A program made the translations under genes and the position numbers. Below, in pieces: positions 6,345-56,279 of a stretch of 64,000 nt of DNA (the first letter of the stretch is position 1; the number at the start of each line of letters is the position of its first letter). The stretch spans positions 1-64,000 of the forward strand of contig NZ_PVNG01000003.1 of the NCBI RefSeq assembly GCF_003001935.1, in the 5' to 3' direction. The stretch is from Nonomuraea fuscirosea. GTDB taxonomy: Bacteria; Actinomycetota; Actinomycetes; Streptosporangiales; Streptosporangiaceae. The notes below the pieces were generated by a model. That model was not told the origin of the DNA. It worked only from the letters and a program-made list of their open reading frames with translations, and made no database searches.

Positions 6345-6890
6345 ATGCCCAAGCCCACCAAGGGTGCGCGTCTTGGCGGAAGCCCGGCGCACGAGCGGCT
6401 GATCCTGGCGAACCTCGCCACCGATCTGTTCCGCCACGGCCGGATCCGCACGACGGTGACCAAGGCCAAGCGCCTGCGTCCCGTCGCGGAGCGCCTGATC
6501 ACCAAGGCGAAGAAGGGCGACATCCACAACCGTCGCCAGGTCCTGACCGTCGTTCGGGACAAGGGCGTGGTCCACCACCTCTTCACCGAGATCGCGACGA
6601 CGTTCGCCGAGCGTCCCGGCGGCTACACCCGCATCACCAAGATCGGTGCGCGTAAGGGCGACAACGCCCCGATGGCGATCATCGAACTGGTGAGCGAGCC
6701 GCTGGGTGGCGTCACGACCCGCGCCACCGAGGCTCCCGCCGCCGAGACCGCCCCTGCGGCTCCGGCTGCCGAGGCTGCTACGGAGACTGAGGCTCCCGCG
6801 GAGGCCAAGGCCAAGGCCGAGACCGCCGAGGCTCCTGAGGCCGCCGCCGAGGAGGCCCCGGCTGCCGAGGCGAAGAAGGACGAAGCCTGA
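6345..6890 (+). CDS. rplQ: 50S ribosomal protein L17 with long Ala/Glu tail
   Basis: bL17 core at residues 1-120 ([60 protein letters not shown]). This is followed by a 60-residue low-complexity tail of Ala, Glu, Pro and Lys. Tails of this kind are common in actinobacterial L17; their role is unknown. AAGGAGAGATGAC places the ribosome binding site ahead of the ATG. Last gene of the alpha operon; a strong terminator follows. Confidence 0.97.
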
Positions 6891-6930
6891 GCTTTCGGAC
6901 CTTCAGGTTCTAGCTCGCAGAACGGCTGAG

Positions 6931-6970
6931 ACGGGCCCGGATCCCCTGACGGGGGTCCGGGCCCGTTTTT
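6931..6970 (+). terminator. Intrinsic terminator of the alpha operon
   Basis: Sixteen-base arms (6931-6946 and 6951-6966) with one G-U wobble and a 4-nt loop, followed by TTTT(T). It lies 40 bp after rplQ and 20 bp before truA, so truA depends on read-through or a promoter within the terminator region. Confidence 0.9.
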
Positions 6971-6990
6971 CATCCCCGGGAGGGAACATC

Positions 6991-7857
6991 GTGGTACGGC
7001 TCCGCCTCGACCTCGCGTACGACGGGACCGGCTTCTCCGGCTGGGCCAGGCAGCCGGGGCTGCGTACGGTCCAGGGGGAGATCGAGCAGGCAATCGGACG
7101 AATCCTGCGCCTCGGCGAGCCGGCCATGCTGACCGTGGCCGGGCGTACCGACGCGGGGGTGCACGCGCGGGGGCAGGTGGCTCACGTGGACGTGCCGGAG
7201 GACAGGCTGGGGGAGCTCGACGGGAACCGGGGGCCTCTGTCCATCGATGAGAGGCTCGCTGCGCTCGTCAGACGGTTCGGTGGTGTCCTGGGCCCAGATG
7301 TACGGATATATCGGGTCTCCGTGGCTCCTGAGGGCTTTGACGCACGGTTCTCGGCGATGTTCCGGCGGTACGCGTACCGCGTGAGTGACGCGCCGGGAGG
7401 CGTCGACCCGCTGCGCCGCTGGGAGATCGTCTGGCACAACCGGCCGCTGGACCTCGGCGCGCTCAACGCCGCCGCCGCGCGGCTGCTCGGCGAGCACGAC
7501 TTCGCCGCCTTCTGCAAGAAGCGCGAAGGCGCCACCACGATCAGGGAACTGCAGCGGCTGGACTGGGTGCGCGGGCCGGACGGGGTGCTGGTCGCCACCG
7601 TCGTCGCCGACGCCTTCTGCCACTCCATGGTCCGAGCCCTGGTCGGCTCGCTGCTGGCGGCCGCGGACGGTCGACGGCCGGTCGAGTGGCCGGGGGAGGT
7701 GCTGCGGCGGGGGGTGCGCGACTCGGGGGTGCACGTGGCTCCGGCGCACGGGCTCTGTCTGGAAGAGGTGGGCTACCCGGCCCCGTCCAACCTCGCGGCC
7801 CGCGCCGTGGCTACGCGACGGGTCCGGACGGTGACCGAGCAGCTCCCGTCCGAGTAG
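6991..7857 (+). CDS. truA: tRNA pseudouridine(38-40) synthase
   Basis: 288 residues. TruA isomerises uridines 38-40 in the anticodon arm of tRNA. The N-terminal [20 protein letters not shown] and the catalytic aspartate motif [13 protein letters not shown] are intact, as are FRRYAYRV and [15 protein letters not shown]. The GTG start at 6991 is chosen because GGGAGGG (6978-6984) lies 6 nt upstream and homologues start there; the frame is open further upstream only because it overlaps rplQ. Usual neighbour of rplQ. Confidence 0.96.
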
Positions 7858-8204: not shown

Positions 8205-11200
8205 TCAGCCCTTGGTGATGCGGCGTTCCAGGACGAGGGTGATCTGGTCTCTGAACGCGCCGCTGACCTTCGGCAGCGTCTTCTCCTTGGCCGTCGGTGT
8301 GTGGCCGTCGGCGTAGGTGGCGTAGCTGAAGACGATGTAGCGGCCCCAGACGAGGCCCGCCGCGTAACCGCCGGCGATGTGCACGCGCTCGCCGCCCGAT
8401 CCGGACGCGCCGGGGAGCGGGCGGAACCAGACGTTACGCGACAGGTCCTTCGCCTGGTCGACCGTGGCGGCGGCGTTCTTGTCCGGCAGGACGGCCAGGC
8501 CCGTGGTGACGGCGTAGCGGCGCTTGCTGTCGACGTACGTCGCCCTGAGCACCCGGCTGCACTTCTGCTCCTTCAGCGCGTCGGCGAAGGCGCCGGTCGC
8601 GGCCTTGTCGCAGGTCGTCTCCATGTGGGCCTTGACCCTGGTGAATGTCGTGCCCGCCGCACTCACCTTCTTCTTCGGGAACGCCTCCGACAGCGACAGC
8701 TTCTGCGGATCGCTCTGCTCGGAGTCGAGCATCGACGTGCCCGCGAGGTCGGCCGGCGGGACCGCGGACTCCTCGGCGACACTCGGACTCGTCGGCGCGG
8801 GCGTGGCGGCCACCGGGGGCGGCGCGGCGGAGTTCATCGCCTGAACGGCGAAGAACCCACCCGTCGCCACGCCGGCCAGGGCCAGCGCGCCGAGCGTGAC
8901 GAGCAACGCCCGTTTGCTCCTGGGCGGGGGAGGTGGTGGTGGCGGGGTCTGGAACGGGGGCTGCTTGAACGCTCCTGGCGGGAACGCTGGGCCGCCCGCT
9001 GGGGGCTTGGGGAGATCGAAAGAGGTCGAGGGCTTGTGACCCCAGGTGTCTCTCGAAAACGGGAGCTCGGGCAGTTTGTCACCGGTCGGAGAATTGGGGG
9101 GCCAGACGGGTACGTCGCCTGGCTCCGGGGGGCGGACGGATGGGTTGGTGGAGCTGGGGTCGAAGGGCGGATTCTGGGAGGCGGCCGATTCGGTCTTGGC
9201 CGCGTTGGGGTCGAAGTAGTGGGCCGGTTTGGCGGTGGTGTCGCGGGTGGACGCGATGGGGGCGGGGAGGTAAGGGAGTTTGGACGGCTTCGAACCGGGC
9301 CCTTGCAGGCCATGCTCGGCTCCCTGGCCTGACTCTTGATCGGATCCCTGTCCTGGTCCCTGGCCGGATGCTTGGTCGTGGGAGGGGTGTGGGTCGGTGG
9401 TGCGGGGGTCGCCTGGGTGAGCGCCCTTGGGGGTCGCGCGGCCGGGGACGGTGAAGCCGGGACGGAGGCCACCGGGCACCGTGTCGGCGGGCTCGGGGCC
9501 ATCGTGGCCCGCGAAGCCTTCTGAGCGGTCGGATGCCTGCTCGCCATGCGCCGAATCCGAGGCCTGCCCGCCAAAGGTGGCATGCGCTGACGCCGAGGCG
9601 TGCTCGCCGGGGACGGCATGCGGTGACCCTGGGGCGTGCCCGGTGGGTGTGGTGTGCGGTGACCCTGGGGCGAGCCCGCCGGGCGTGGTGTGCGGTGACC
9701 CTGGGGCGAGCCCGCCGGGCGTGGTGTGCGCCGACTCCGGGGAGTGTCCGCCCGGGGCGGTGTGGTCCGGTGGCTGCTGGTCGTGGGCGGTGTGACCGGA
9801 GGGTTGCGTGGCCTGCCGGTCATGCGTGGCGGACGACGAGGCCGCCCGATCGTGCTCGGTCTGCGTCAGGCGCTGGCCGCCGTGGCCCGGTGGGTCCTGG
9901 AGTTGCCGGTCGTGCGGGAGCGCGGTGCTTGGAGGCGTTCCCGGATGGCTTTCGGTGCCCGTGCCCGGATGATCTGCTGCACCAGGGTGTCCCGGGGCGC
10001 TGGGGTGGCCGGCTGCGTCGGGATGACCGGATGCGCCGGAGTGGCCTTCGGCGCTCGGTCGGCCGGATACGCCCGAGATGCCCGAATGGTCCGGGGTGTC
10101 GGCGTGCCCTGCTGCGTCGGGATGGCCCAGGGCGCCGGGGTGACCCGTGGCGTCGGGATGGCCTGGGGCGCCGGGGTGACCAGTAGCGTCCGGATGGCCT
10201 GGGGCGCCCGCTGGGCCGTTGGGCGTGGATGGGTGGGCGGGTATGCCGTCGGGAGGCGTGTCGTCCGCGTGGAGATGGCGGGTGGCGTCCTGTTGCGTAG
10301 CGTCCGGGTCGAAGTAGTGAGCCGGGTGGGAGAGGCCCTCCGGTTGGGTGGCGCTCGCGTCGAAGGGCGTGGGCAGCTGGCCCGGCTCGTCAGAGTCGGG
10401 CTCGGCCACCAGCTCGCCCGTGGCGGCCGGCCAGGGAGGCACGGCGTGCGGATCGGAGAGGGGCGCGGGCCACACCGGCATGCCCGCCGCAGCGGCGGTG
10501 AAGGCGGGCGGGGGCTCCCAGGGCGGCGCACCGGGCACCACGGGCTCCACCGGCCAGGCACCGGCCTGCCCACCGGGACCACTGGCCAGTCCGCCGGGAC
10601 CGCCAGCTCGCCCACCAGGACCGCTGGTCTGCCCACCAGGACCGCCAACTTGCCCACCGTGGCCGCTGGCGTGCCCACCGGGACCGCCGGGCTGCGCACC
10701 GGGATCCTCACCGGCGGCGTCCCACGGCCGCATCTCATGAATCCGTCCTGGTCGGACCTGGTTACTCTCGGCCTGGGGGTGGTGCGGTGCCGGCCATGGC
10801 TGGTCGCTTCCGGCGTGGGGCGGGGGCGACCATGGCTGGTTGGCGTCGGGTGCGGCGTTGTGGGGAGCTGCCCAGGGTTGGCCGGTCTCGGCTCCGGGGT
10901 GGTGTGGCGGTGACCATGGCTGGTTGGCGTCGGGTTGGGCGTTGGGGGTGCCCGCCCAGGGTTGGCCGGTTTCGGCTTGGGGGTGGTGCGGTGCCGGCCA
11001 CGGCTGGTCGCTTCCGGCGTGAGGTGGGGGCGACCATGGCTGGTCGGGTTCGGGCTGGGCGGCGGCTGCCCACGGTTGGTCGGTTCCGGCCTGGGAGTGT
11101 GGCGGTGACCACGGCTGGTTGGCCCCTGGCTCGGCCTGGGACTGGTGGGGTGCCGGCCATGGTTGGTCGGCACCGGTCTGCAGGGGAGGCGGCGACCACG

Positions 11201-12413
11201 GTTGGTTGGCGTCGGGTTGGGCGTTGTGGGTGGTTGCCCAAGGTTGGCCGGTGTCGGCTTGGGGGTGGTGCGGTGCAGGCCACGACTGGTCGGCTTGGGC
11301 GTGGGGTGGGGGCGACCATGGCTGGTCGGGTTCGGGCTGGGCGGTGGTTTCCCAGGGTTGGCCGGTCTCGGCTCCGGGGTGGCGTGGGGGTGACCATGGC
11401 TGGTTGGCGGTGGGGGTGGCCGCCCAGGGTTGGCCGGAGTCGGTCTGGGGGTGGTGCGGTGTCGGCCACGGTTGGTCGGTCGCGGGCTGAGAATGCGACG
11501 GTGACCACGGCTGGCCGGGTTCGGCTCCGGGGTGGTGTGGTGTCGGCCATGGTTGGCCGGAGCCGGAGCCGGAGCCGGAGCCAGGACCGGGCTGGGTGTG
11601 GTGCGGGGTTGGCCAGGAGGGGTCGGTGGAGGGTTGGCCGAAGGAGGAGCTGGGCGAGGACGGTGCGTGCGGCTGGTGGCCGGGGTGCGGGGCGCCGGAG
11701 GGCTCCGCGGCTGCGGGGCCGGGGTCGGTGGGGTCGGAGTACCAGTCGTAGGGGGCGGCGTCGTCGCCCGGTACCTCCCACGGCTGAGCGGCGCCGGACG
11801 GCTCCTCCGGATCTCCCTGCCGCCCCTGGAAGGCCGAGGCGACAGGCGACGCCTCGGCATCGGCTGACCCACCCGCCGGGAAGCCGCTCGGAGCACCGGA
11901 CGCGGCATCCGCAGGGAAACCACTGGCGGTGCCGGTAGAGGCGTCGGCCGGCAAGCCGCTCGGCGTTCCGGTGGAGGCGTCGACCGGGAAACCACTAGGG
12001 GTTCCGGTGGAGGCGTCGGTCGGGAAACCACTAGAGGTGCTGGTGGAGGCGTCGGTCGGGAAGCCGGGTGCAGCGCCGATCGAGGCGTCCGCAGGGAAGC
12101 TGCTGGGGGCGCCGGAGGTGGCGTCGGCCGGCAAGCCGCTCGGGGTTCCGGTCGAGGGGTCGGCCGGGAAGCCGCCCCGGGTGCCGGGGGCGGCATCGGT
12201 TGGGGCGCCGGACGCGGGTCCGGGTGCTGGGGTGCCGGTCGAGGGGTCGGTCGGCTCGCCGGTTCGGGGGTCGGTTGAGGGGTCGGTCGGAGGGAACGCC
12301 GGTGGAACGTCTCGCCCGTTGGTCTGGCCGAAGCTCGGCGGTGGCGTCACAGGTGCGGCCGAGCGTTCGGCTTCCCTGTGATCGTGCTCAGACCCGGGTT
12401 CCTGGCCACGCAT
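8205..12413 (-). CDS. Giant repetitive single-pass membrane protein (paralogue of the next gene)
   Basis: 1402 residues, function unknown. Residues 1-1150 are low-complexity and rich in Pro, Gly, Ser, Thr, Ala and His. They include 12-residue ASTGTPSGFPxD-type repeats (about 60-180), about 20 DQPWxxPxHxP-type tryptophan repeats (about 287-545), then GHPGAPGHPDAT and HTTPGGLAPGSP repeats. A basic RSKR precedes one membrane helix at about 1168-1190. The last 210 residues are a globular-looking extracytoplasmic domain with two cysteines 17 apart (about 1268, 1285). That domain resembles the C-terminus of the adjacent 626-aa protein. With N-in topology the repeats are cytoplasmic. The start ATG has TAGGCT six bases upstream and no ribosome binding site, suggesting a leaderless message. 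Confidence 0.7.
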   Translation of the reverse strand: MRGQEPGSEHDHREAERSAAPVTPPPSFGQTNGRDVPPAFPPTDPSTDPRTGEPTDPSTGTPAPGPASGAPTDAAPGTRGGFPADPSTGTPSGLPADATSGAPSSFPADASIGAAPGFPTDASTSTSSGFPTDASTGTPSGFPVDASTGTPSGLPADASTGTASGFPADAASGAPSGFPAGGSADAEASPVASAFQGRQGDPEEPSGAAQPWEVPGDDAAPYDWYSDPTDPGPAAAEPSGAPHPGHQPHAPSSPSSSFGQPSTDPSWPTPHHTQPGPGSGSGSGSGQPWPTPHHPGAEPGQPWSPSHSQPATDQPWPTPHHPQTDSGQPWAATPTANQPWSPPRHPGAETGQPWETTAQPEPDQPWSPPPHAQADQSWPAPHHPQADTGQPWATTHNAQPDANQPWSPPPLQTGADQPWPAPHQSQAEPGANQPWSPPHSQAGTDQPWAAAAQPEPDQPWSPPPHAGSDQPWPAPHHPQAETGQPWAGTPNAQPDANQPWSPPHHPGAETGQPWAAPHNAAPDANQPWSPPPHAGSDQPWPAPHHPQAESNQVRPGRIHEMRPWDAAGEDPGAQPGGPGGHASGHGGQVGGPGGQTSGPGGRAGGPGGLASGPGGQAGAWPVEPVVPGAPPWEPPPAFTAAAAGMPVWPAPLSDPHAVPPWPAATGELVAEPDSDEPGQLPTPFDASATQPEGLSHPAHYFDPDATQQDATRHLHADDTPPDGIPAHPSTPNGPAGAPGHPDATGHPGAPGHPDATGHPGALGHPDAAGHADTPDHSGISGVSGRPSAEGHSGASGHPDAAGHPSAPGHPGAADHPGTGTESHPGTPPSTALPHDRQLQDPPGHGGQRLTQTEHDRAASSSATHDRQATQPSGHTAHDQQPPDHTAPGGHSPESAHTTPGGLAPGSPHTTPGGLAPGSPHTTPTGHAPGSPHAVPGEHASASAHATFGGQASDSAHGEQASDRSEGFAGHDGPEPADTVPGGLRPGFTVPGRATPKGAHPGDPRTTDPHPSHDQASGQGPGQGSDQESGQGAEHGLQGPGSKPSKLPYLPAPIASTRDTTAKPAHYFDPNAAKTESAASQNPPFDPSSTNPSVRPPEPGDVPVWPPNSPTGDKLPELPFSRDTWGHKPSTSFDLPKPPAGGPAFPPGAFKQPPFQTPPPPPPPPRSKRALLVTLGALALAGVATGGFFAVQAMNSAAPPPVAATPAPTSPSVAEESAVPPADLAGTSMLDSEQSDPQKLSLSEAFPKKKVSAAGTTFTRVKAHMETTCDKAATGAFADALKEQKCSRVLRATYVDSKRRYAVTTGLAVLPDKNAAATVDQAKDLSRNVWFRPLPGASGSGGERVHIAGGYAAGLVWGRYIVFSYATYADGHTPTAKEKTLPKVSGAFRDQITLVLERRITKG
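9623..9730. repeat. Three tandem 36-bp repeats inside the giant membrane protein gene
   Basis: Copies at 9623-9658, 9659-9694 and 9695-9730; the second and third are almost identical. On the minus strand each encodes the 12-residue unit HTTPGGLAPGSP. The near-identity indicates recent expansion by slippage or recombination. Confidence 0.85.
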
Positions 12414-12419
12414 AGCTGG

Positions 12420-12425
12420 AGCCTA
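12420..12425 (-). promoter_or_regulatory. Candidate leaderless -10 element of the giant membrane protein gene
   Basis: On the minus strand TAGGCT is followed by CCAGCT and the ATG at 12413, so transcription would start at or next to the start codon. No ribosome binding site is present. The identical hexamer precedes tsaB and acpS at 8 and 6 nt. Confidence 0.5.
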
Positions 12426-12512
12426 GCGAGAGTAGCGAGATCGTTATGTCGGTATGGATGTTCCCAGCAGCATCACGAGTCCCGTACCGGCGCTTATGTC
12501 CCACAATGCCGA

Positions 12513-14393
12513 TCAGCCCGCCCGGCTTCCGGTGAGCGCGCGGTTGTCGAGGGCGGGGAAGACGGTGGCCTTGGAGATGTCGTTGATGGCCTGTGCGATC
12601 CGCTTCGTCCCCTTCGCGTCGGGCTTCGTGCCGTCCTTGTTCTGGAACCAGAACAGGATCGCGTAGTGGCCGTACGTCGAGATCTTCGCGCCGCCGCTGC
12701 CCGAGCCGAGGAACTTCGTGACGGTGTCCTTGCCCGCGAGTGGCTTGACGTAGTTCTTGGTGTCGCCGGCCTTGGCCACCTTGGCCGCCAGCTTGCTCGT
12801 CTTGAGGTTGGCCACGCCGACCGTGCCGATCACCTTGGCGGACTTGTCGCGGAAGCTCGCCCGGACGAACTGGGTGCACTTGGCGGACTTGAGCGCCTTC
12901 TGGAGGGTGTCGCCAAGAGCGCCGTCATTGCACTTCTTGTCCTTGCTGGTGATCGTCATCTCGTAGCTGCGGCCCGAGATGGTGATCTTCTTCCGCTTCC
13001 CGAACACCTCCTTGACCGTGATCGCGTCAGGGTCGGTGGTGCGCGCGGCCGCGAAGCCGTACTTGCCGGCCGGGACCGACGGCAGCGGCGCCGAGGTCTG
13101 GCGGGTGTTGGCGGTCTCGGCCGTCACGGGGCCGTCGGCGTTCCACATCAGGGCCAGGCCGCCGCCGAGCAGGCCGAGCACCAGCACTCCGCCGATCGCG
13201 AACCAGAGCGGGGCGCGGGAGCGCTGATCCTCGTCGTACGGGCTCCAGCCCACCTTGCTCTGCGGCGCCCTCGGGGTGTCGTCGCCGGCGTCGTCCTTGT
13301 TCTTCTTCTTGGACGCGTCCTTGGCCTTGGCGGGGTCCTTGTCGCCCTTGTCGGCCTTGCCCCTTCGGGAACGGCGGCCCTTGCCGGTCGCCGATTTGTC
13401 GTCGTCCGGCGCGCCGGAGTCGGGGTTTCCGCCGCCAGGGCCGCCAGGGCCGCCGGGACCGCCTGGTCCCGGGTTGACGCCGAACGCGCCGCTGTCGCCG
13501 CCGAACGGGTCGCCACCGCCGAAGGAACCGCCGCCGAACGGACTGCCTCCGGCCCTGCGTCCACCGGAACGGCCTCCGCCCGGCCGGTCGCCGCCGGATG
13601 GGTCACCGCCGGACCGGTCGTCTCCGGAACGGCCGCCTCCGGACGGGCCGCCACCTGAGGGGCCTCCGCCGAAGAAGCCGCCCCCGGGGTCACCCCCCGG
13701 GCCGCCGCCTCCGCCGGGGCCTCCCGGACCGCCCGCGCCGTGCGAACCGCCAGAAGGACCGCCGCGTGCGCGTCTGCCTCGGCTGGGAAGCCCTTCAGAC
13801 GGGCCACCGCCACCAGGGCCACCGCCGCCGGGGCCGCCACCTCCAGGGCCACCACCCCCAGGACCGCCGCCGTGACTGCCGCTACCAGGACCGCCGCCGT
13901 GGCCACCGCCACCAGGACCGCTGCCCCCAGGACCGCCGCCCCCCGGGCCGCCGATCATGAAGGCGCCGCTCGTGGGCCCGCCACCGCTGGAACCGCCGTT
14001 GAAGTCACCGATGAAGCCACCGCTCGCGGGTCCACCACCGTTGGGGCCGCCGTTCGCGGGCGCGCCGTGGGCGCCGCCGCCGTTCAGCGGCCCGCCGTTC
14101 AGCGGCCCGCCGTTCAGCGGCCCGCCGTTCAGCGGCCCGCCGTTCAGCGGCCCGCCGTTCAGCGGCCCGCCGTTCAGCGGCCCGCCGTTCAGGGGTCCGC
14201 TGTCGAAGGGGTCGCCGTTCACCGGCCTGCCCCCCGAGGGTCCCGCGGCCGCGTGCGAGCCGCCCGCGGGCGCGCCGCCTCGGGGCGCGCCGCCCATTCC
14301 GTAGGGGGCGCCACCGGCGGGACCGGGGCCGAAAGGGGCGAAGGGGGCATCGCCCGTGCCGTTCTCGCGTTCCCTATCGCCGTTGGAAACCAT
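12513..14393 (-). CDS. Glycine/proline-rich single-pass membrane protein (paralogue)
   Basis: 626 residues, function unknown. The N-terminal region is Gly/Pro/Ser-rich with eight GPLNG pentapeptides, then long GGP/GGG runs, then a charged stretch (KGRRSRRGKADKGDKDPAKA). One membrane helix lies at about 395-417. The C-terminal 200 residues form an extracytoplasmic domain with cysteines at about 488 and 506. Aligned features shared with the 1402-aa protein include a V/EAFxKKK-like segment, the C-x17-C region ending in KC(S/T), R(A)(S/T)(Y/F)xD, and GSGSGG followed by GxY/GHYAIxF. Two genes of the same architecture side by side point to a tandem duplication with divergent repeats. TAGTGT six bases before the ATG suggests leaderless transcription. 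Confidence 0.75.
   Translation of the reverse strand: MVSNGDRERENGTGDAPFAPFGPGPAGGAPYGMGGAPRGGAPAGGSHAAAGPSGGRPVNGDPFDSGPLNGGPLNGGPLNGGPLNGGPLNGGPLNGGPLNGGPLNGGGAHGAPANGGPNGGGPASGGFIGDFNGGSSGGGPTSGAFMIGGPGGGGPGGSGPGGGGHGGGPGSGSHGGGPGGGGPGGGGPGGGGPGGGGPSEGLPSRGRRARGGPSGGSHGAGGPGGPGGGGGPGGDPGGGFFGGGPSGGGPSGGGRSGDDRSGGDPSGGDRPGGGRSGGRRAGGSPFGGGSFGGGDPFGGDSGAFGVNPGPGGPGGPGGPGGGNPDSGAPDDDKSATGKGRRSRRGKADKGDKDPAKAKDASKKKNKDDAGDDTPRAPQSKVGWSPYDEDQRSRAPLWFAIGGVLVLGLLGGGLALMWNADGPVTAETANTRQTSAPLPSVPAGKYGFAAARTTDPDAITVKEVFGKRKKITISGRSYEMTITSKDKKCNDGALGDTLQKALKSAKCTQFVRASFRDKSAKVIGTVGVANLKTSKLAAKVAKAGDTKNYVKPLAGKDTVTKFLGSGSGGAKISTYGHYAILFWFQNKDGTKPDAKGTKRIAQAINDISKATVFPALDNRALTGSRAG
14081..14200. repeat. 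Eight tandem 15-bp repeats (GPLNG codons)
   Basis: Seven perfect copies of CGTTCAGCGGCCCGC start at 14081, 14096, 14111, 14126, 14141, 14156 and 14171; an eighth at 14186 has two mismatches. They encode the GPLNG pentapeptide array of the 626-aa membrane protein. Identity at the DNA level marks it as a hypervariable minisatellite. Confidence 0.95.
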
Positions 14394-14417: not shown

Positions 14418-15173
14418 TCATTGGGTTCCGAAGTCCTGGGTCCACCATGGTCCGCCGGGGCCCGACGCGACGCCCACGCCGATGGCCCGCAGGCGGCAGT
14501 CGAGGATGTTCCTGCGGTGGTCGGGGCTGTCCAGCCAGCCGCGTACGGCCTCGTCGGCGGTGCCGTAGCCGGCGCCGATGTTCTCGGCGGCGCCCCAGCG
14601 GTATCCGGCGCGCTCCATCCGGTCCCACGGCGAGGCGCCGTCGGGGGAGTTGTGCGTGAGCTGCCCGGTGCGGGCCATCTCCAGTGAGTGCGCACGCGCG
14701 GAACGGGTGAGCCCGCCGTCCACCCGCAGCGGCGCGCAACCGCGCCTGGACCTGGCCGAGTTCGTCAGGGAGACCACCCGCGAGGCGACGCCGGCCAGCA
14801 CCTGTACGCCGCCGTCCTCGCCGCCGAGCACCCGCGTCCTGTCCTCGGAGGCGAAGCCCGGGATCTGGTCCTTCGACGACCTGGTCGGCCTGGGCGTCGG
14901 GGCGCCGCTGGGCAGCTTCTTGGTCGTGACGCCCCTGGGGATGCTTTCGAGCTGCTGCGCCTTCCGCGCCGCCGTCGGCGCGGGGTTGGCGGTGGCGGCC
15001 GCGGGCGGGACGGTCTCTTCGAGGTAGACGTGCCGGGCCGGGTCGGGATCGGTGGTGAGCCGGCCGATCAGCACACCGGTGAAGAGCACGGCCATGAGGC
15101 AGGCCAGCACACCCAGGTGACTCCGGCGCCGATGGCCGCGCTGGGTTTGCCGGGTGCGAGAGTTCTGCCACAT
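14418..15173 (-). CDS. CAP (SCP-like) domain extracytoplasmic protein
   Basis: 251 residues. An N-terminal basic region and one hydrophobic segment (about 21-40, LGVLACLMAVLFTGVLIG) anchor or export the protein. A Pro/Thr-rich linker follows, and the C-terminal 125 residues are a CAP domain: VVSLTNSARSRRGCAPLRVD, RSARAHSLEMARTGQLTH, WDRMERAGYRWGAAENIGAG, WLDSPDHRRNIL. Bacterial CAP proteins act outside the membrane; their biochemical role is largely unsettled. It ends 24 bp before the 626-aa membrane protein gene and reads in the same direction, so the three genes may work together at the cell surface. Confidence 0.88.
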   Translation of the reverse strand: MWQNSRTRQTQRGHRRRSHLGVLACLMAVLFTGVLIGRLTTDPDPARHVYLEETVPPAAATANPAPTAARKAQQLESIPRGVTTKKLPSGAPTPRPTRSSKDQIPGFASEDRTRVLGGEDGGVQVLAGVASRVVSLTNSARSRRGCAPLRVDGGLTRSARAHSLEMARTGQLTHNSPDGASPWDRMERAGYRWGAAENIGAGYGTADEAVRGWLDSPDHRRNILDCRLRAIGVGVASGPGGPWWTQDFGTQ

Positions 15174-15310: not shown

Positions 15311-15479
15311 AGGTTCGTTGTGTGCATAGGTCCAGCGCGACCAATGCGCGGCGCGTCCGGCGTCATCTCCCGTGTTGCGGAGACGGAAGGTCCGGGCCGT
15401 CGTGTGCCCGCACCGACCGACCAATGTAGCTGTCACATCCGACAGCGCCGAAGACGCGAGCATAAAGAAGGCTACGACC

Positions 15480-15923
15480 GTGCGCACGTACTCACCGAAG
15501 CCCGCCGACGTCCAGCGTCAGTGGTACGTCATCGACGCGACCGATGTCGTGCTGGGCCGGCTGGCCAGCCACGTCGCGACCCTGCTCCGCGGCAAGCACA
15601 AGCCGATCTTCGCCAACCACGTCGACACCGGTGACTTCGTCATCGTCATCAATGCCGACAAGATCGCGCTGAGCGGCAACAAGCGTGAGCAGAAGAAGGC
15701 GTACCGCCACTCGGGCTACCCGGGCGGTCTGCGTTCCGTCAGCTATGGCGAGCTCATGGACAAGCGGCCCGACAAGGCAGTGGAGAAGGCCGTCAAGGGC
15801 ATGCTGCCGAAGAACTCCCTCGGCCGGAAGATGGCCAAGAAGCTGAAGGTCTACGCGGGTTCTGAGCACCCGCACCAGGCCCAGCAGCCGGTGCCGTTCG
15901 AGATCACCCAGATCGCCCAGTAG
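15480..15923 (+). CDS. rplM: 50S ribosomal protein L13
   Basis: uL13 of 147 residues beginning [20 protein letters not shown], with DVVLGRLAS and [20 protein letters not shown]. The GTG start at 15480 has AAGAAGG (15465-15471) 8 nt upstream and matches the family N-terminus. An extended frame back to 15372 is not part of the family. First gene of the rplM-rpsI-glmM unit; rpsI begins 26 bp later. Confidence 0.96.
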
Positions 15924-55010: not shown

Positions 55011-55034
55011 GCTCATGAGCTCATGAGCTCATGA
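55011..55034. repeat. Triple 8-bp repeat GCTCATGA overlapping the subtilase stop
   Basis: Three perfect copies of GCTCATGA; each junction makes GAGCTC and each unit contains TCATGA, so the block is also self-complementary. It overlaps the stop codon of the minus-strand subtilase gene (55029-55031). Confidence 0.8.
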
Positions 55035-56279
55035 CGGGGGGTAGCGCGTCGCGTCGTGCACGTCGAGCAGCGGCTCCTTGACACCGTCGCCCGAGTCGTC
55101 GGTCCAGTTGCTGTTGCCGGTCGAGATCAGCGCGCTGCGCACCGCCAGCGATCCCGTCCGGTTCGTCGGCTTGTTGGCGCCCGAGGTGAGCAGCCCGGCC
55201 GCGCCCGCCACGTGCGGGCTGGCCATCGAGGTGCCGCTGATCGTGGCGTAGCCGCCGTTGCGGTAGGTCGAGTAGATGCAGGTGCCGGGCGCGGTGATCT
55301 CGACGGTCGAGCCGAAGTTCGAGTAGAACGCCGACGTGTCGTCCAGGTCGCTCTCGCTGCGGCACGACAGCGTGCTGCCTCCGGCTCCGCCGGCCAGGCC
55401 GTCGTTGTCGGTCAGCGCCGAGACGGTGACCACGTCGGGGTGGTTGGCGGGGAAGAAGCCCGAGGTGTTGGCGTGGCTGTTGCCCGCGGCCACCACGACG
55501 ACGATGCCGGCGTTGACCGCGTTCGTGATCGCCGTGCTGATCGCGCTGCTCGAACAGCCGCTGCAGCCCAGGCTCAGGTTGATCACCTCGATGGTGGACG
55601 CGCGCGCCACCACCCAGTTGAGGCCCGCGGCGATGCCGGACAGGGTGCCGGAGCCGGCCGCGTTGAGGACCTTGACGCCGTGGATGCGGGCGCCGGGCGC
55701 GACGCCCACCGGGCCGATGGTGTTGTCGAGGGCGCCGACGGTGCCCGCGACGTGGGAGCCGTGGCCGTTGTCGTCCACGCCGGAGTTGTTGACGCAGACG
55801 CCGGTCTGGCAGTTGGTCCGCGCGACCACGTTCAGATCGGGGTGGGTGTTGTCCACGCCGGTGTCCACGACGGCCACGTCCACGTCGATGCGGACGTCGT
55901 CGACGCCGTCGATGTCCAGGTTGGGGTTGCTCGGGCCGAAGATCCGGCGTACGCCGGTGGGCACGGTCTGGACGAACGCCTTGACCTCGGCGTCGGGCTC
56001 CACGCTGAGCACGTTCGGGTTCTGCTTGAGCTTCTCGGCCGCCGCGGCGCTCAGGCGGGCGGTGTAGCCCTTGAACGCGTGCTCGTACACGCCGACGAGC
56101 TCGCCGCCGGCCTGTGACACCTGGTCGGACGCGACGCCGTGCGGGGCGCGCATCGCGGGGTTGAGCTGGACGATGTACGTGCCGTCCGGAGCCGCGGTGG
56201 CGGCAGAGACCGGGAGCGGCGCGGCGAATAACGCCAGCGCGCCGACGAGCGATGCGAGCAGGGGGGTGCGTGTTCGCAT
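55029..56279 (-). CDS. Secreted subtilisin-like serine protease (S8)
   Basis: 416-residue preproprotein. Signal peptide at about 1-28 (RTRTPLLASLVGALALFAAP), I9-type propeptide at about 34-105 (GTYIVQLNP, YTARLSAAAAEKLKQNPNVL), catalytic domain with D139 (VAVVDTGVD), H173 (NGHGSHVAGT), oxyanion N267 (AAGNSHAN) and S351 (SGTSMASPHVAG). Several cysteine pairs suggest disulfides. The ATG at 56279 is chosen as the start of the signal peptide; a longer frame adds 23 polar residues. Single gene. Confidence 0.94.
   Translation of the reverse strand: MRTRTPLLASLVGALALFAAPLPVSAATAAPDGTYIVQLNPAMRAPHGVASDQVSQAGGELVGVYEHAFKGYTARLSAAAAEKLKQNPNVLSVEPDAEVKAFVQTVPTGVRRIFGPSNPNLDIDGVDDVRIDVDVAVVDTGVDNTHPDLNVVARTNCQTGVCVNNSGVDDNGHGSHVAGTVGALDNTIGPVGVAPGARIHGVKVLNAAGSGTLSGIAAGLNWVVARASTIEVINLSLGCSGCSSSAISTAITNAVNAGIVVVVAAGNSHANTSGFFPANHPDVVTVSALTDNDGLAGGAGGSTLSCRSESDLDDTSAFYSNFGSTVEITAPGTCIYSTYRNGGYATISGTSMASPHVAGAAGLLTSGANKPTNRTGSLAVRSALISTGNSNWTDDSGDGVKEPLLDVHDATRYPPS

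What the first reader, a model, noticed from the sequence alone, without database searches (positions are those of the whole stretch)
8205..14393. Tandem pair of giant low-complexity membrane proteins sharing an extracytoplasmic domain
Two adjacent minus-strand genes (1402 and 626 aa) have the same plan: a very long repetitive Pro/Gly-rich N-terminal part, one membrane helix, and a 200-residue C-terminal domain. The C-terminal domains align by eye (a KKK segment, two cysteines 17-18 apart with the second in KC(S/T), GSGSGG, a hydrophobic strand near the end). The repeats differ completely: DQPW-type tryptophan repeats in one, GPLNG/GGP in the other. Helix position predicts repeats inside and the shared domain outside. 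A CAP-domain protein lies upstream in the same direction. The block is inserted between truA and rplM. I know of no described family with this plan; it could be a cell-envelope assembly or condensate-forming receptor pair.
Basis: partly seen in the sequence, partly recalled or inferred. Interest (0 to 1): 0.8.

Follow-up and report, generated by a model that had tools for sequence, protein, structure and literature searches.

The report
Conserved sensor-like pair with disordered arms
Next to a ribosomal-protein gene, a soil actinobacterium encodes two membrane proteins that pair a small folded outer domain of the kind seen in mycobacterial sensor proteins with very long unstructured inner arms, and this unannotated gene block is kept in many related bacteria.

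The parts
8205..12413 (-). DOMa: 1402-aa single-pass membrane protein (giant arm, helix, PknH-like domain)
8205..8825 (-). DOMa C-terminal extracytoplasmic domain (206 aa and stop); modelled at pLDDT 84.8, closest fold PknH extracellular domain
8844..8903 (-). DOMa membrane helix (residues 1171-1190), basic residues on the N-terminal side
8559..8612 (-). DOMa cysteines C1268 and C1285 (first and last codon of the stretch), the only two in the protein
8910..12413 (-). DOMa cytoplasmic low-complexity arm (Pro/Ala/Gly-rich, QPW repeats, net acidic)
12378..12413 (-). conserved head of the arm, MRGQEPGSEHDH
   Evidence: head motif in 23 of 23
12324..12359 (-). conserved arm motif AAPVTPPPSFGQ
   Evidence: PPxSFG in 21 of 23
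10485..10520 (-). conserved arm motif WEPPPAFTAAAA
   Evidence: 12 of 23
9090..9125 (-). conserved arm motif EPGDVPVWPPNS
   Evidence: 18 of 23
12513..14393 (-). DOMb: 626-aa single-pass membrane protein (arm, helix, PknH-like domain)
12513..13103 (-). DOMb C-terminal extracytoplasmic domain (196 aa and stop); modelled at pLDDT 93.6
13149..13208 (-). DOMb membrane helix (residues 396-415)
12876..12932 (-). DOMb cysteines C488 and C506 (first and last codon of the stretch)
13209..14393 (-). DOMb cytoplasmic low-complexity arm (GPLNG, GGGP repeats)
13230..13247 (-). conserved WSPYDE motif just before the DOMb helix
   Evidence: 10 of 24
14418..15173 (-). CAP-domain protein with N-terminal hydrophobic segment (by eye), first gene of the block
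6706..7857 (+). truA ORF (flank; convergent)
15372..15923 (+). rplM ORF (flank; divergent)

Best explanation
The CAP protein, DOMb and DOMa are made from one block and act together at the cell envelope. DOMa and DOMb cross the membrane once with the N-terminus inside. Outside, each shows a PknH/TiME/RseB-like domain held by one disulfide, which binds an envelope ligand or a partner protein, possibly the CAP protein or each other. Inside, a flexible disordered arm of hundreds of residues works as a multivalent tether that collects cytoplasmic partners through conserved short motifs (MRGQ head, PPPSFG, PVWPP, FTAAAA). Thus outer binding is passed to an inner scaffold instead of to a kinase. Shown by computation here: homology of the domains, predicted fold, topology by charge, conserved gene block, conserved arm motifs. 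Inferred: co-transcription, disulfide, disorder of the arms (from composition), complex formation, ligand, partners, signalling.
For: Fold: both models rank PknH extracellular domain, TiME, Rv0999 orthologue and MucB/RseB at the top; in two of eight genomes the best PknH_C Pfam hit falls on a moeZ-locus member of this family. Two or more Cys in 112 of 112 domains of the tree set (3 short matches of 115 were dropped). Helix with 3.7 K/R before and 0.7 after on average in 23 DOMa, 2.7 and 1.0 in 23 DOMb (one truncated or short protein of 24 dropped in each). Arm motifs: excess scores 31.5, 29.5, 26.5, 23.0 against a maximum of 10.5 in ten shuffled references. Block CAP-DOMb-DOMa in every pair-bearing locus read, as far as the stretches reach (L163). 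CAP found in 25 of 25 stretches with DOMb and in 0 of 13 single-DOM loci.
Against: No ligand, partner or phenotype was found for any member (paper searches). A shared fold shows no function; Foldseek alone gave no match at E 0.001 or better for DOMb. In six of the eight genomes PknH_C has its best hit elsewhere (own genome included) or no hit. The motif patterns were written after seeing the sequences, and about half of DOMa arms lack FTAAAA or WPAATGE (12 of 23 each have them). Streptomyces has one member near rplM, a short arm and no CAP gene found there. Loci for one search were picked because they hold the pair, so they do not estimate how common pairs are; CAP was sought with the window's CAP only, so a diverged one could be missed.
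Confidence: 0.45

Rival explanations
1. The family is built around mycosin-like proteases: the outer domain is a partner, regulator or substrate of membrane-anchored mycosins that stand outside type VII loci. Binding or cleavage outside controls the protein, much as RseB/MucB guards an anti-sigma factor from its protease (recalled). The truA-rplM pair would be members served by proteases encoded elsewhere.
For: moeZ-DOM-mycosin-DOM-mycosin in 17 of 17 two-domain moeZ stretches, 1+1 in G220; DOM-mycosin also on own contig C27 and, weakly, in three of four Streptomyces stretches near infC. In the own genome, of five mycosin places over 230 bits, the three away from EccC all lie beside a DOM gene. 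First mycosin keeps D/H/S in 17 of 17; the second lost all three in 7 of 17. MucB/RseB is among the fold matches.
Against: No mycosin found in the truA-rplM and lgt stretches. The stretches around the two own mycosins near EccC (L110, L111) show no DOM. The infC members score only 24-33 bits, and one of the four stretches shows none. The moeZ stretches were chosen for having two domains.
Confidence: 0.25
2. Only the outer domain matters, as an envelope carrier or accessory protein like TiME; the arms are loosely constrained spacers that swell by repeat expansion in GC-rich DNA.
For: Frame length ranges from 693 to 1439 aa in DOMa and 258 to 744 in DOMb; the window arms are full of DNA tandem repeats; moeZ members mostly have short arms; TiME is a close fold match.
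Against: Short motifs persist far beyond shuffled expectation, the head in 23 of 23; DOMa is the longer one in all 23 two-gene loci.
Confidence: 0.22
3. The long N-terminal frames are not translated and the real genes start near the helix.
For: GC-rich DNA keeps long spurious frames open; arm GC3 (0.78-0.81) is lower than domain GC3 (0.94-0.96).
Against: The start peptide MRGQ and inner motifs are conserved across genera.
Confidence: 0.02
4. Inverted topology: arm outside as a wall-spanning surface fibre, domain inside.
For: Pro/Gly/Trp repeats resemble wall-spanning stretches (general knowledge, no call).
Against: K/R distribution; conserved Cys pair fits an oxidising outside; the top fold matches are extracytoplasmic domains by their titles.
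Confidence: 0.05

Closest known systems
Extracellular domain of PknH of Mycobacterium tuberculosis (PDB 4esq; Pfam PF14032 PknH_C)
   Different: No kinase domain found: the inner part is a low-complexity arm. Identity 6-10% in the structural alignment; PknH_C cut-off not reached
TiME soluble domain (PDB 7cu9, 7cu8; I recall this as TtfA, the MmpL3 partner)
   Different: MsTtfA has its helix at residues 2-24 and a disordered C-terminus (PMC6593404, passages), not a giant N-terminal arm; no MmpL3 link tested here
MucB/RseB
   Different: Soluble periplasmic proteins of proteobacteria (recalled); only part of the fold aligned
Type VII mycosin operons
   Same: Paralogues of DOM are encoded with mycosin-like proteases (TIGR03921 269.3 bits, cut-off 278.75)
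   Different: No EccB/C/D or Esx genes recognised by eye at these loci; own EccC-bearing stretches show no DOM
CwsA (PF10814)
   Same: Weak Pfam match in 17 of 45 members
   Different: In the members inspected the match covers the helix region only and stays below cut-off (best 23.5 against 26.7)

Membership tests
PknH_C (PF14032) | Pfam score over curated cut-off (27 bits) | tested here: not met
   best 24.9 bits (G141 moeZ locus) in 8 genomes, none over cut-off; P0142 18.5 bits; window proteins not listed at E up to 1
PknH_C (PF14032) | fold of the PknH extracellular domain | tested here: met
PknH | cytoplasmic Ser/Thr kinase domain | tested here: not met
   no kinase family in P0002 or P0003 at E up to 1
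TiME/TtfA | fold of the soluble domain | tested here: met
TiME/TtfA | complex with MmpL3 and role in mycolate transport | not testable with these tools
   needs bench work; role seen in passages and abstract of PMC6593404 only
Type VII secretion component | lies in a locus with EccC | tested here: not met
   own stretches around the mycosins near EccC (L110, L111) show no DOM; DOM blocks show no Ecc gene recognised by eye
Mycosin (neighbour at moeZ locus) | TIGR03921 over cut-off and catalytic triad | tested here: inconclusive
   269.3 bits against 278.75; triad kept in first copy 17 of 17, lost in 7 of 17 second copies
CAP superfamily (PF00188) | Pfam score over cut-off | tested here: met
   85.8 bits against 21.1 for window 14418-15173
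DUF3558 | Pfam match | tested here: not met
   not among the 15 families matched by any of 45 members at E up to 1; one source names P0018 so
CwsA (PF10814) | Pfam score over cut-off | tested here: not met
   best 23.5 against 26.7, helix region

The most novel reading that the evidence does not exclude
An undescribed actinobacterial system of kinase-less PknH-type receptors: paired outer sensor domains, read out either by giant motif-bearing disordered cytoplasmic arms (truA-rplM and lgt loci) or by partner mycosin proteases and mycosin pseudoproteases (moeZ locus), so that signal transfer runs through scaffold assembly and regulated proteolysis instead of phosphorylation.
Probability: 0.15. 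Interest if true: 0.85.

Novelty: new variant of a known kind. Interest (0 to 1): 0.6.

Why it matters
A domain found in each of 61 genomes sampled across the family, and in Streptomyces, reaches no family model in the libraries tried and no paper on it came up in the searches made, though it sits beside ribosomal-protein genes. The work gives it a fold, a conserved partner gene, a protease association and arm motifs that can be tested directly. It also gives cases of bacterial membrane proteins with about a thousand low-complexity residues in which short motifs, not length or repeats, are conserved.

Tried and rejected
Family libraries: PHROGs and PADLOC gave nothing at E 0.01 (of DOMa only its domain was given). 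PDB by sequence gave nothing for the DOMb domain; for profile A2 six rows at E 0.029 to 0.63, best an extracellular haem-binding protein over helix and linker, not pursued. Weak NCBIfam rows over A2 (CU044_5270 in 19 and Rv1815 in 16 of 45 members, best E 8.3e-5 and 1.9e-4; T7SS_Rv3446c in one at 0.08) were set aside because members were scanned whole and arm or helix may produce them; that was not checked. Foldseek alone found no match at E 0.001 or better for DOMb; the fold statement rests on VIA-align rows.

Idea that one ancestral gene has stayed at truA-rplM: the tree does not show it. The 13 single members need four label changes; Streptomyces ones group with the moeZ set (a join flagged as long-branch), those of f15 and f32 lie on the DOMb/lgt side. 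I therefore speak of relatives, not orthologues, outside family f1.

Idea that the family descends from the ESX-4 block: in 9 genomes of another family (f4), a mycosin listed (capped list) lies within 15 kb of rplM in 5 (G043, G070, G102, G112, G122). EccC was recognised by NCBIfam in the 4 large ORFs tried near rplM. No credible DOM was found in the 8 stretches read (profile hits there cover helix and linker or a short piece). So descent is not supported.

First look by pattern suggested that 15 of 17 second mycosins lack the catalytic Asp; the alignment corrected this to 7 of 17 lacking all three residues, 9 keeping all, one cut by a contig end.

Charge complementarity of the two arms: DOMa is more acidic than DOMb in 21 of 22 loci, but opposite signs hold in only 6 of 22, so electrostatic pairing is not claimed. 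Promoter and terminator scan was uninformative. Paper searches: none for truA/rplM with Streptomyces membrane protein, none for disordered single-pass proteins of Streptosporangiales, no 'PknH-like' in the ten papers listed; some searches were read as listings only, apart from passages of PMC10924467 and PMC6593404. Six Streptomyces coelicolor gene numbers guessed from memory gave one transcriptome paper (PMC3610822, passages), not used because the numbers were not tied to this family.
Full report
What is there. The two ORFs are as described. I call the 1402-aa protein DOMa and the 626-aa protein DOMb. Their last 206 and 196 residues align at 29% identity over 153 residues, E 2e-15. Each protein has only two cysteines, both in this domain. 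The domain codons carry strong coding bias (GC3 0.94-0.96) and change less at amino-acid than at silent sites against same-genus relatives (dN 0.14-0.20, dS 0.34-0.53). No Pfam or NCBIfam family reaches its cut-off on either DOM protein; PHROGs and PADLOC gave nothing for DOMb and the DOMa domain. The gene upstream in the same direction is a CAP protein. The block is convergent with truA and divergent from rplM.

The organism. Closest named relatives of DOMb are Nonomuraea proteins (up to 84% over the domain), so the window probably comes from Nonomuraea or a near relative; family f1 of the genome set is then Streptosporangiaceae or close to it (inference from these names). Family f16 is Streptomyces by the names. 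The labels moeZ, lgt, gltB, VIT and infC used below were given by eye.

Spread. A search with the DOMb domain hit 61 of 61 genomes sampled from the family. A profile of six own-genome copies hit 88 of 296 genomes of the class. The own genome has six clear copies at three loci and a seventh weaker one: the truA-rplM pair; a pair between lgt and gltB (one with a frame of up to 1318 aa); two at moeZ; one on contig C27.

The truA-rplM block. I read 25 stretches from 24 genomes, the window included, chosen because they hold this pair. All five genes (truA, DOMa, DOMb, CAP, rplM) are present in the same order in 22; in one (L132) the stretch ends before truA; G114 is split over two contigs, each showing its part. 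A further genome (G220, L163) also has all five. DOMa is the longer protein in all 23 two-gene loci (frames of 693-1439 aa). Thirteen single-member loci from four families (f1, f16, f15, f32) were read: rplM was found on the stretch in 11 of 13, truA in 11 of 13, and CAP in none at BLAST E 1e-15 with the window's CAP; in the 25 stretches with DOMb a CAP gene is present in 25. A tree of 112 domains (3 short matches of 115 dropped) puts DOMa and DOMb in separate groups: 24 DOMb together at 100/99, all 25 at only 77/50; the 25 DOMa with the two single f1 members at 97/87. So the pair is not a recent duplication. The other single members do not form one group with either, so common descent of all rplM-linked members is not shown.

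The arms. The arms diverge in length and repeats, yet DOMa keeps a head M(R/S)G(Q/K)(D/E) in 23 of 23, PPxSFG in 21, a (V/T)xVWPP-type motif in 18, YxW(F/Y/H) in 13, FTAAAA in 12 and WPAATGE in 12 of 23, with shuffled expectations of 0.08 genomes or fewer; a looser PVW motif has 20 of 23 against 6.74. The patterns were written after the scan. Four 12-mers of the window arm have excess conservation of 31.5 to 23.0 against a largest value of 10.5 in ten shuffled references; the next ones (12.5 to 10) are close to that limit. DOMb keeps WSPYDE before the helix in 10 of 24, a basic head motif in 14 of 24 (shuffled 0.98) and a W(F/Y) motif in 14 of 24 (shuffled 1.24). Four Streptomyces relatives that I read have short arms with SFGQ and W-P motifs; relation to the DOMa motifs was not tested. 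This argues that the frames are translated and that short motifs, not repeats, are kept.

Topology. The most hydrophobic segment before the domain has 3.7 K/R before and 0.7 after it on average in 23 DOMa, and 2.7 and 1.0 in 23 DOMb. By the positive-inside rule the arm is inside and the domain outside.

The protease link. At moeZ, 17 of 17 stretches with two domains read DOM-mycosin-DOM-mycosin, and G220 has one of each. The stretches were chosen for having two domains. The first protease of the own genome scores 269.3 bits to the mycosin model (cut-off 278.75); this first copy keeps Asp/His/Ser in 17 of 17; the second has lost all three in 7 of 17, keeps all in 9, and is cut in one. A weaker DOM lies by a mycosin on own contig C27 and in three of four Streptomyces stretches near infC, at 24-33 bits. 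Of five mycosin places over 230 bits in the own genome, two lie by EccC and three by DOM genes. The truA-rplM and lgt stretches show no mycosin.

How it probably works. I favour an envelope complex of CAP, DOMa and DOMb in which PknH/RseB-like outer domains bind a ligand or partner and the arms inside serve as multivalent tethers. A protease-centred reading is the main rival and could be joined to it. All steps after anatomy are inference. No paper on the family came up in the searches made.

Verdict. The finding is real and wider than reported: a conserved, unannotated family with a known type of outer fold and an unusual inner part. I rate it a new variant of a known kind, interest 0.6.

Noticed in passing
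L146-L149, L155, L160, L074 (moeZ locus of related genomes): Second mycosin-like protein of the DOM-mycosin-DOM-mycosin block has lost Asp, His and Ser of the catalytic triad (pseudoprotease) in 7 of 17 loci.
   Followed up: partly
L175-L180 (rplM regions of family f4): The region next to rplM, where DOM genes lie here, holds type VII genes (EccC in four ORFs tried, mycosin in five stretches) in genomes of another family.
   Followed up: partly
L007:2016-10419 (own genome, lgt locus): A further giant low-complexity DOM protein (frame up to 1318 aa) and a second DOM gene whose start overlaps its stop follow a MauE-like protein, a DsbA-like thioredoxin, lgt and a VIT-like gene (labels by eye).
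   Followed up: partly
L008:1407-3892 (own genome, before moeZ): Three small secreted-looking paralogues rich in Trp, His, Gly or Asn (107, 99, 115 aa) with a shared MPKLKSV start.
   Followed up: no
window 55023-55883 -: A subtilase match (94 bits to the mycosin model) with one TGA inside the matched frame.
   Followed up: no
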